This document shows, one piece after another, positions 18,681 to 19,745 of a stretch of DNA of 64,000 bases (position 1 is the stretch's first letter; each line of letters begins with the position of its first letter). Source of the stretch: Haloprofundus halobius (GTDB taxonomy: Archaea > Halobacteriota > Halobacteria > Halobacteriales > Haloferacaceae); assembly GCF_020097835.1 (NCBI RefSeq), contig NZ_CP083666.1, positions 1 to 64,000 of the forward strand, given 5' to 3'. A model generated the notes under the pieces. It searched no databases. It saw nothing but the letters and a program-made list of their open reading frames with translations, and was not told where the DNA came from. The translations under genes and the position numbers were made by a program.

Positions 18681-18750
18681 CTCTCCGATGGGAGTCGAAC
18701 CCACCTCCGCCGGGATGGACCGGCGTGTCCCACCGCTGGACCGCGGAGAG
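18681..18750 (-). tRNA. tRNA-like sequence 1 (non-canonical anticodon loop)
   Basis: 70 nt on the minus strand fold as a cloverleaf. The acceptor is CTCTCCG/CGGAGAG (7 perfect pairs), the D-arm GTCC-AGCGGTG-GGAC, the anticodon arm CGCCG/CGGCG, and the T-arm GTGGG-TTCGACT-CCCAT. The anticodon loop is 8 nt (GTCCATCC) instead of 7, or 6 nt if the stem is extended, and the variable loop is only 3 nt, so no standard anticodon can be assigned. The D-arm resembles haloarchaeal tRNA-Gly. It is either a degenerate tRNA or a tRNA-like RNA. No CCA is encoded. Confidence 0.5.
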
Positions 18751-18774
18751 TGCGCGCCAGAGGCGAGAACACGC

Positions 18775-19128
18775 TCACGCGTCGCGGACATCGCGCACCT
18801 CCGAGGCGACCGACGCCTGTTTGACGCCGAAGCTGTCGAGCAACTGTGCTTCGAGCGTAGCCGCGTCCGACCCGTCTTCGGCACCTGCGGCGCCACCGTC
18901 ACCGACGTCCACGTCGAGTTCGACGACGAGCGTCGTGCGGACTTCGACCGTCAGGTCGTTCAGACCGGGTTGGAGGCCGCAGAGTTCGAACTCCTCGACG
19001 CTCGTCACGCCGTCTAGCGTTCGCAGTCGCTCGCGGACGGCCGTCCGGAGGTCACCGGAGGCGTCGCGCGAGACGAACACCGTCAGGTCGGCTTGCGCCG
19101 ACACGGGGGGCAGTTTCTGCACTGACAT
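18775..19128 (-). CDS. Small acidic protein flanked by tRNA-like sequences
   Basis: 117 residues from the ATG at 19128 (MSVQKLPPVSAQADLTVFVS). An N-terminal alpha/beta stretch (VFVSRDASGDLRTAVRERLRTL, then SVEEFELCGLQPGLNDLTVEV) is followed by a Gly/Asp/Ala linker and a C-terminal helix. I do not recognise a family. The start lies four bases inside the 3' side of tRNA-like sequence 2 and the stop is 25 bases before tRNA-like sequence 1, so the three could share a transcript. The upstream extension to 19158 would run into the tRNA-like sequence and is rejected. Confidence 0.6.
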   Translation of the reverse strand: MSVQKLPPVSAQADLTVFVSRDASGDLRTAVRERLRTLDGVTSVEEFELCGLQPGLNDLTVEVRTTLVVELDVDVGDGGAAGAEDGSDAATLEAQLLDSFGVKQASVASEVRDVRDA

Positions 19129-19131
19129 GAG

Positions 19132-19197
19132 GGGGTCGGGAGGGAGTCGATTCCTCACCTGTCCGCGGACCGCTCTGCCGCTTGAGCTACCGACCCC
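19132..19197 (-). pseudogene. tRNA-like sequence 2 lacking a normal anticodon arm
   Basis: 66 nt on the minus strand. The acceptor GGGGTCG/CGACCCC pairs perfectly, and the D-arm AGCTC-AAGCGGC-AGAGC is exactly canonical. Where the anticodon arm should be there is only a 10-nt perfect palindrome GTCCGCGGAC with no room for a loop, and the T-arm (GAGGA-ATCGACT-CCCTC) has a mismatch and lost the first T of TTC. It is about eight bases too short for a tRNA. It sits immediately upstream of the small gene at 18775-19128. Confidence 0.5.
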
Positions 19198-19389
19198 ACC
19201 GCGCGAAGCGATGGCTTCGGTCGGAAGACGTTTCGTCAGTCGACAGCGGACGCGGCACGCGCCGCGGTGACGACACGCGAGTCCGAGACACGCGCGTCGC
19301 TGCCGTCGAAGATCGCCGGAGAATGAACCGTGGGGCTCGACTCCGACGACCGCGAAAGATACGCAGACGCCGGAGGCGTCGCGTGCTCA

Positions 19390-19482
19390 CGCGATGACGG
19401 AGTCGAACCGACCGTACGGCTTGGATGGGCCAGACCCAACTCCGGCGCAGTTGCCGGTGGACACACCAGTCGCCATCCGCTC
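19390..19482 (-). other. tRNA-like region 3 (T-arm plus serial hairpins)
   Basis: Contains a recognisable T-arm GTCGG-TTCGACT-CCGTC (19396-19412, minus strand), preceded by hairpins TGGG/CCCA, CCGGC/GCCGG and GGTG/CACC. Flanking sequences GCGGATGGCG and CGTCATCGC can pair with one bulge but overlap the T-arm, so it is not a standard cloverleaf. Together with sequences 1 and 2 it forms a same-strand cluster within 0.8 kb. Confidence 0.35.
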
Positions 19483-19745
19483 GGTGGCGAGGGCGGGTGA
19501 CGGGGTGTGGTGGGTGTGGCTGAGCATCGTTCACCGTGCCCGCTTCTGCGGGCGCTTACAGACACGTCACGTGGTCAATACATAAACGTTATCGATGTGT
19601 GCCACGAGTTACCACGAAATCTCGTCCCTCGCATGGAGCGCGTATGGTGACACTGCGTCACGGTTTTTGGTTTTTTGGCTTCGCGAGCACGCGCGCGCGA
19701 AGGGCTTAGGCGTGGTCGGCCCCTACGGATAGTCGGAGAAATCTC
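19483..19745. other. Intergenic region before the flavoprotein gene
   Basis: No gene seen. AT-rich patches at 19578-19600 (AATACATAAACG) may be a promoter for the tRNA-like/minus-strand transcript, and a T-rich stretch at 19662-19677 (two runs of T separated by GG) could end a plus-strand transcript. The flavoprotein ATG at 19746 is preceded by GGAGAAATCTC, a plausible Shine-Dalgarno site. Confidence 0.4.

What the first reader, a model, noticed from the sequence alone, without database searches (positions are those of the whole stretch)
18681..19482. Cluster of three tRNA-like sequences around a small gene
Sequence 1 is a full cloverleaf but with an 8-nt anticodon loop; sequence 2 has perfect acceptor and D-arms but a loopless palindrome for an anticodon arm; sequence 3 has a T-arm amid hairpins. 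All are on one strand and bracket a 117-residue gene. Perfect acceptor stems in two of them argue against random decay and suggest kept tRNA-like RNAs, possibly processing signals or decoys.
Basis: partly seen in the sequence, partly recalled or inferred. Interest (0 to 1): 0.68.

Follow-up and report, generated by a model that had tools for sequence, protein, structure and literature searches.

The report
tRNA-like leader abutting a haloarchaeal gene
Across salt-loving archaea, a small-protein gene of unknown function almost always starts 2-5 bases after a shrunken tRNA, which suggests the cell's tRNA-trimming enzymes cut out its messenger RNA, as happens in mitochondria.

Summary
The window is a Haloprofundus (Halobacteria) chromosome. 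Two of the three tRNA-like elements are real and conserved: TLE1 (18681-18750, -) and TLE2 (19133-19196, -). The third is a conserved T-arm/hairpin region (19317-19412), not a cloverleaf. All three persist in the five genus genomes available, while the 'anticodon' loops vary, so TLE1 and TLE2 are not decoding tRNAs. TLE2 ends 4 nt before the ATG of the 117-aa gene.

The same architecture occurs class-wide. Of 71 homologous genes examined, 67 have a T-arm plus acceptor strand, ending 2-5 nt before ATG in 66. The T-stems covary strongly. In 20 fresh loci 16 fit; all four misses are one genus. Some relatives carry a complete tRNA-Glu there, others only acceptor plus T-arm.

Best explanation: tRNase Z cuts after the element to make a leaderless mRNA. 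Where a second element follows the stop codon, as here, RNase P would define the 3' end. That is an archaeal form of mitochondrial tRNA punctuation. The cleavage is inferred, not shown. Paralogues sit beside 41 of 47 TROVE (Ro60) genes in haloarchaeal tRNA clusters; the window copy has no TROVE gene in its genome.

The parts
19577..19586 (-). Promoter-like box TTTATGTATT; transcription start expected near 19557 (inferred)
   Evidence: Nearly invariant in the five genus genomes within a variable intergenic region. The start site itself is inference.
19538..19553 (-). Conserved 5' hairpin GCCCGC-AGAA-GCGGGC near the expected transcript start
   Evidence: Conserved in the genus alignment.
19396..19412 (-).
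   Evidence: Conserved in all five genus genomes; the surrounding 206 nt is found only in the genus.
19317..19345 (-). Fourth conserved hairpin CGGAG-TC-GAGCC-CCAC-GGTTC-ATT-CTCCG; its 5' half can alternatively pair with GGTTCGACTCCG of the preceding T-arm
   Evidence: Sequence and genus alignment. The window's A-to-G change keeps a G.U pair only on the - strand.
19133..19196 (-). TLE2, tRNA-like leader: acceptor 19196-19190/19139-19133, D-arm 19187-19172, vestigial anticodon arm 19170-19161, T-arm 19156-19140; discriminator position C19132; 4 nt from acceptor end to ATG
   Evidence: Counterparts are class-wide.
18775..19128 (-). 117-aa gene, small protein of unknown function with a predicted ferredoxin-like fold
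   Evidence: Homologues in 235 of 391 genomes and 64 of 86 genera of the class with profile A1; AlphaFold2 pLDDT 73; no Pfam or NCBIfam family.
18681..18750 (-). TLE1, tRNA-like element beginning about 25 nt after the stop codon; full cloverleaf with an 8-nt 'anticodon' loop of variable sequence
   Evidence: ARAGORN; 100% of pair cells kept in five genomes. In L012 similarity ends about 10 nt beyond TLE1. Post-stop elements also occur in L039, L056, L057, L075 and L076.

Best explanation
The 117-aa gene is expressed from a longer - strand transcript (promoter near 19580) in which tRNA-like elements act as cutting signals. tRNase Z recognises the acceptor/T-arm stack of TLE2 and cuts after the discriminator base, leaving an mRNA with about 3 nt before AUG, i.e. 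a leaderless mRNA, the normal haloarchaeal kind. RNase P can cut at the 5' end of TLE1 just after the stop codon and so define the mRNA's 3' end. The unit descends from a genuine tRNA-plus-gene dicistron: in some relatives the tRNA is still complete; in most it has shrunk to the parts the processing enzymes need. Shown here: the elements, their conservation and covariation, the fixed 2-5 nt distance to ATG, the loss of a fixed anticodon, and the lack of a TATA-like box at the distance needed for direct initiation at the ATG. Inferred: the cleavages, the identity of the enzymes and the promoter.
For: Own genus: TLE1, TLE2 and the T-arm/hairpin region are far more conserved than the spacers in five genomes, while the 'anticodon' loops vary. 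Class-wide: 67 of 71 genes have a T-arm with a TCGA loop followed directly by the acceptor strand. T-stem cells are 89% Watson-Crick against 28% at other [AT]TCGA sites in the same loci. On 50 distinct sequences the covariation score is 0.584 against 0.107 shuffled (0/500), and slid partners give 0.13 or less. Acceptor pairing is perfect in 24 of 67 against 1.5% of dinucleotide shuffles. The distance to ATG is 2-5 nt in 66 of 67. A strict search finds 34 of 71 genes with an element ending 2-4 nt before ATG; the 16 other hits in 541 kb of the same loci are mostly further elements beside these genes. Out-of-sample test: 16 of 20 fresh loci fit. RefSeq's start of HALLA_RS19590 is the ATG 2 nt after the element. 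L151 and L152 carry a complete tRNA-Glu (59 bits) whose acceptor ends 4 nt before the ATG; if it matures as a tRNA, cutting its 3' end necessarily makes the mRNA 5' end. 0 of 56 loci have an A/T-rich hexamer at -34..-25, against 9 of 20 uncurated window ORFs. No CCA follows the element in any locus. Precedents: an element upstream of 5S rRNA is cut by tRNase Z in H. volcanii, and flanking elements release a crRNA in vivo (PMC4326828; PMC4946936). Leaderless mRNAs are defined as 0-5 nt and make up 72% of transcripts (PMC4983044).
Against: No RNA data were available; cleavage is unproven. TLE2 of the window has an A.C mismatch at 53-61 and an ATCGACT loop, so it may be a poor substrate. About a third of the class-wide elements have imperfect acceptor pairing. 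L046/L047 have no element, and genus g32 has only a degenerate one. The divergent TROVE-linked paralogues have a leader of about 70 nt with Shine-Dalgarno-like words instead, so close abutment is not universal. Post-stop elements are seen in only some genomes. The promoter control set was small and uncurated.
Confidence: 0.62

Rival explanations
1. The element is an uncut regulatory leader. The tRNA-like fold hides the start region (in many species a purine-rich, Shine-Dalgarno-like acceptor strand) and opens or closes in response to a ligand, a tRNA-binding protein or the gene product, as the tRNA-shaped yjdF riboswitch does.
For: 29 of 66 leaders carry a 4-nt SD-like word in the acceptor region; in the window region the T-arm of sequence 3 and the next hairpin can pair in two exclusive ways. 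The yjdF riboswitch regulates translation through a tRNA-like fold (PMC9142559).
Against: 37 of 66 leaders, including all five of the window's genus, have no SD-like word. The middle of the element varies freely in length and sequence, which does not suggest a ligand pocket. The conserved features are those that tRNA 3'-processing needs.
Confidence: 0.17
2. The tRNA-like RNA is a partner of the encoded protein (or of Ro60 in TROVE genomes), a small structural RNA of the Y-RNA/YrlA kind. Adjacency to the gene only reflects co-expression of protein and RNA.
For: Nearly every homologue has a tRNA or tRNA-like element beside it. Paralogues sit within 3 kb of 41 of 47 TROVE genes on the same strand. 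The protein is predicted to have a small ferredoxin-like fold. Bacterial Y RNAs mimic tRNA (own knowledge, not tested here).
Against: It does not explain the 2-5 nt spacing to the ATG or the loss of most of the RNA body in many species. The window genome has no TROVE gene.
Confidence: 0.15
3. The elements are decaying remnants of tRNA genes with no present function.
For: The anticodon arms are degenerate. Complete tRNAs stand at the same place in L151, L152 and L073.
Against: Strong covariation and a fixed position class-wide; conservation above the spacers within the genus.
Confidence: 0.03
4. The motif works as DNA (a promoter or a site for a transcription factor), with the palindromic T-arm as the site.
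For: Short, palindromic, at a fixed distance from the ATG.
Against: T-stem letters vary with compensation while the 7-nt loop stays close to TTCGANY; the distant acceptor 5' strand also pairs; complete cloverleaves occur at the same place.
Confidence: 0.03

Closest known systems
t-element upstream of 5S rRNA in Haloferax volcanii (tRNase Z substrate; Hoelzle 2008, 2012, as cited in PMC4326828 and PMC7714728)
   Same: tRNA-like structure directly upstream of another RNA, with the 3' side of the element as the new 5' end; haloarchaeal.
   Different: Here the downstream RNA is an mRNA and the element stops 2-5 nt before its start codon; it is conserved class-wide with one gene family. Cleavage is not shown here. 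The 2012 paper could not be read and may list elements next to protein genes.
Synthetic t-element-crRNA-t-element constructs in H. volcanii (PMC4326828, PMC4946936)
   Same: An insert between two tRNA-like elements is released by tRNase Z and RNase P in vivo.
   Different: Artificial and for crRNA; the TLE2-gene-TLE1 unit is a natural arrangement of the same form around an ORF.
Mitochondrial tRNA punctuation (reviewed in PMC9181182)
   Same: Excision of tRNAs or tRNA-like sequences frees the flanking mRNAs.
   Different: A single gene on an archaeal chromosome, with elements that have lost their decoding parts.
Haloarchaeal tRNA gene clusters with TROVE genes (PMC6333295)
   Same: Paralogues of the 117-aa gene and their tRNA-like neighbours lie in clusters of this kind, beside TROVE genes.
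   Different: The window copy is a solo unit in a genome without TROVE. The survey mentions hypothetical proteins but, in the text read, not this gene family or the abutment.
yjdF riboswitch (PMC9142559)
   Same: tRNA-like fold in a 5' leader.
   Different: Bacterial, ligand-binding, not a tRNA-derived acceptor/T-arm element next to the ATG.

Membership tests
tRNA-like processing element (t-element) | Acceptor stem stacked on a T-arm | tested here: met
   TLE1 and TLE2 in the window; class-wide statistics. TLE2 has one T-stem mismatch.
tRNA-like processing element (t-element) | Lies directly upstream of the RNA it matures | tested here: met
   2-5 nt before ATG in 66 of 67 loci; RefSeq start agrees in one of the two annotated cases.
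tRNA-like processing element (t-element) | Cleaved by tRNase Z and/or RNase P | not testable with these tools
   No RNA or enzyme data; no CCA after the element in any locus, which is compatible.
Functional tRNA gene | Scores above Rfam's tRNA threshold | tested here: not met
   No match in the window; 47 true tRNAs elsewhere in the genome.
Functional tRNA gene | 7-nt anticodon loop with a conserved anticodon | tested here: not met
   TLE1 loop is 8 nt and variable in five genomes; the TLE2 loop is absent or of variable length.
Mitochondrial-type tRNA punctuation | tRNA or tRNA-like element on both sides of the mRNA | tested here: met
   In the window and in L039, L056, L057; not in most other genera.
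Mitochondrial-type tRNA punctuation | mRNA ends made by RNase P and RNase Z | not testable with these tools
   Needs 5'/3' end mapping and depletion strains.
TROVE (Ro60) / tRNA cluster island | TROVE gene within 3 kb | tested here: not met
   No TROVE in G000; met for paralogues at 41 of 47 TROVE loci.
Y RNA (YrlA type) | Ro60-binding stem joined to a tRNA-like module | not tested
   No Rfam Y-RNA match in the window; the Ro-binding stem was not searched for specifically.
Provirus/plasmid attachment site in a tRNA fragment | Adjacent integrase and duplicated tRNA 3' end | not tested
   Orthologous elements around the same gene in five species argue against it, but no search for an integrase or repeat was made.

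The most novel reading that the evidence does not exclude
A whole archaeal class uses natural tRNA punctuation for one protein-coding gene family. A tRNA gene fused to a small ORF inside TROVE (Ro60) islands was reduced step by step to a minimal tRNase Z signal, and the encoded ferredoxin-like protein binds tRNA-like RNA and controls its own mRNA's release.
Probability: 0.2. Interest if true: 0.9.

Novelty: new variant of a known kind. Interest (0 to 1): 0.78.

Why it matters
tRNA-like elements were known as processing signals for 5S rRNA in one haloarchaeon and as tools in the laboratory. A class-wide protein gene whose mRNA start is set by such an element would show that tRNA-processing enzymes also make mRNA 5' ends in archaea, and would give a second route to leaderless mRNAs besides transcription starting at the AUG. 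The series from complete tRNA-Glu to bare acceptor/T-arm shows how a tRNA can become an mRNA-processing signal. The link to TROVE/tRNA clusters names a candidate partner for a Ro60-like system in archaea. All of this is directly testable with 5'-end sequencing and tRNase Z assays.

Tried and rejected
Rfam at gathering and relaxed thresholds: only weak tRNA-Sec-like scores for TLE1 and the sequence-3 region, judged meaningless. Single-sequence folding energy: not informative at this G+C content.

Decoding tRNA: rejected because the anticodon loops vary. Phage origin: no homologue in 50,697 phage records. Named scan with the single protein found nothing; a family alignment named Haloprofundus marisrubri, Halogranum, Halobaculum, Halolamina and others.

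A general SD-sequestering leader was rejected as the universal explanation because more than half of the leaders lack an SD-like word. Direct transcription initiation at the ATG was disfavoured because no A/T-rich box lies at -34..-25 in 56 loci.

The protein's fold search gave no significant match: top hits are archaeal EF-1 beta, DUF211-like proteins and dodecin, E 0.07 or worse, so no function is claimed. In one search I picked the wrong ORF in L040 and missed the TROVE gene; corrected.

Full report
WHAT WAS CHECKED. The window is bases 1-64000 of a 3.2-Mb contig of a 3.95-Mb haloarchaeal genome. The 117-residue gene is 19128-18775 on the - strand.

THE ELEMENTS. TLE1 (18750-18681) is called by ARAGORN as a tRNA without identity. 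TLE2 (19196-19133) has acceptor, D-arm, vestigial anticodon arm and T-arm, and its acceptor ends 4 nt before the ATG. The third sequence contains a T-arm-like hairpin but no conserved acceptor; it is followed by a conserved hairpin that can pair with it instead of with itself. None reaches Rfam's tRNA score, whereas the genome has 47 normal tRNAs. Folding energies alone are unremarkable, so the case rests on comparison.

WITHIN THE GENUS. In all five genomes the elements are kept while spacers diverge, and in one of them the sequence beyond TLE1 is unrelated. In TLE1 every one of 105 pair cells is a standard pair. Only a few stem positions vary and all stay paired; most other changes fall in the D-loop and in the 'anticodon' loop. 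With five close sequences the shuffle control for TLE1 is not itself significant (88 of 500), so TLE1 rests on conservation more than on covariation. In TLE2 the anticodon arm changes length. This excludes decoding. A box TTTATGTATT at 19586-19577 and the sequence after it are almost invariant, suggesting one transcript carries all the elements and the gene.

ACROSS THE CLASS. The gene has homologues in 187 of 391 genomes by single sequence and 235 of 391, in 64 of 86 genera, by profile. I read the leaders of 71 of them. In 67 a TCGA T-loop lies 15-45 nt before the ATG, with T-stem pairs 89% Watson-Crick against 28% at other [AT]TCGA sites in the same loci. On 50 distinct sequences the T-stem has 94.4% pairs, changes on both sides at 4 of 5 pairs, and a covariation score of 0.584 against 0.107 for shuffles and 0.13 or less for slid partners. 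Related sequences inflate such shuffles, but the slid control keeps relatedness. The acceptor partner was searched upstream: perfect in 24 of 67, against 1.5% of dinucleotide shuffles; looser pairing is common by chance and was not counted. The distance from acceptor to ATG is 2-5 nt in 66 of 67. With a strict definition, 34 of 71 genes have an element ending 2-4 nt before ATG; the 16 hits elsewhere in 541 kb are mostly post-stop elements or the L039 array. In 864 kb of the window's own genome no other element stands at an ATG.

OUT-OF-SAMPLE TEST. Twenty further homologues not used before were fetched and tested with the same kind of criterion: 16 fit. The four misses are all genus g32, whose earlier members also had degenerate leaders. 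RefSeq places the start of HALLA_RS19590 exactly at the ATG 2 nt after its element; in a second annotated plasmid the RefSeq start lies further downstream.

FROM tRNA TO SIGNAL. L151, L152 and L073 have complete tRNA-Glu genes (57-59 bits) 4, 4 and 22 nt before the ATG. L039 has a near-complete one 2 nt before it, inside an array of further tRNA-like genes. Most genera keep only acceptor, a short variable middle and T-arm. A divergent paralogue group has a tRNA-Gly(GCC)-like element about 70 nt upstream and a Shine-Dalgarno-like leader.

TROVE LINK. These paralogues and L039 lie beside TROVE (Ro60) genes: 41 of 47 TROVE loci in 43 genomes have a family member within 3 kb on the same strand, 38 of them downstream. 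These correspond to the haloarchaeal tRNA gene clusters with TROVE described in PMC6333295. The window's genome has no TROVE gene, so its copy is a solo unit.

MECHANISM. tRNase Z cutting after the discriminator would leave 1-4 nt before AUG, inside the 0-5 nt definition of leaderless mRNAs, which are 72% of transcripts in H. volcanii (PMC4983044). The leader leaves no room for a ribosome-binding site outside the element. In none of 56 loci is there an A/T-rich box at the distance needed for initiation at the AUG. tRNase Z cutting at a tRNA-like element upstream of 5S rRNA, and release of an RNA between two such elements, are established in H. volcanii. The cleavage of these mRNAs is inference; my confidence in it is 0.62.

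THE PROTEIN. No Pfam or NCBIfam family. Predicted beta-alpha-beta-beta-alpha fold, pLDDT 73; structure matches are weak and centre on archaeal EF-1 beta, DUF211-like and dodecin folds. Function unknown; an RNA-related role is a guess from its neighbours.

LIMITS. No transcript data. The homologue set was taken mostly from best matches and is phylogenetically uneven. The key earlier paper on tRNA-like elements in H. volcanii (Biochimie 2012) is not held, so part of the novelty is unverified.

Noticed in passing
G022 contig 1 around 2083695-2086400 (L040 5536-8700): Second copy of the gene in an array of tRNA-like genes (Gln, Glu, Pro/Glu-like, Trp, Glu, Lys) followed by a TROVE + Ro60-vWA gene; two larger tRNA-like elements there carry long inserted hairpins and could be Y-RNA-like.
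   Followed up: partly
47 TROVE loci in 43 haloarchaeal genomes: The small-protein family is a near-constant neighbour (41 of 47) of archaeal TROVE genes, usually downstream with a tRNA-Gly(GCC)-like element between.
   Followed up: yes
L015, L016, L019, L039, L061, L065, L076, L084; window about 19205-19225 (-): A motif like GAGAGGCATCGCTACC stands shortly upstream of the element in many species (GAAGCCATCGCTTC in the window); role unknown.
   Followed up: no
window 19317-19412 (-): GGTTCGACTCCG, CGGAGTCGAGCC and GGTTCATTCTCCG allow two mutually exclusive pairings, conserved in the genus; could be a switch.
   Followed up: partly
L054, L056, L057, L075, L076: tRNA-like elements also follow the stop codon of the homologous gene (strict search finds L056, L057, L075 and L076; L054 by eye).
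   Followed up: partly
L017 and L028, downstream of the gene: The next gene reads like Pus10, the tRNA pseudouridine synthase for T-loop positions 54/55 (by eye, not searched).
   Followed up: no
L046 and L047 (genus g23): Homologues without any element have a T-rich promoter-like box (CTTTTTG) about 35 nt before the ATG instead.
   Followed up: no
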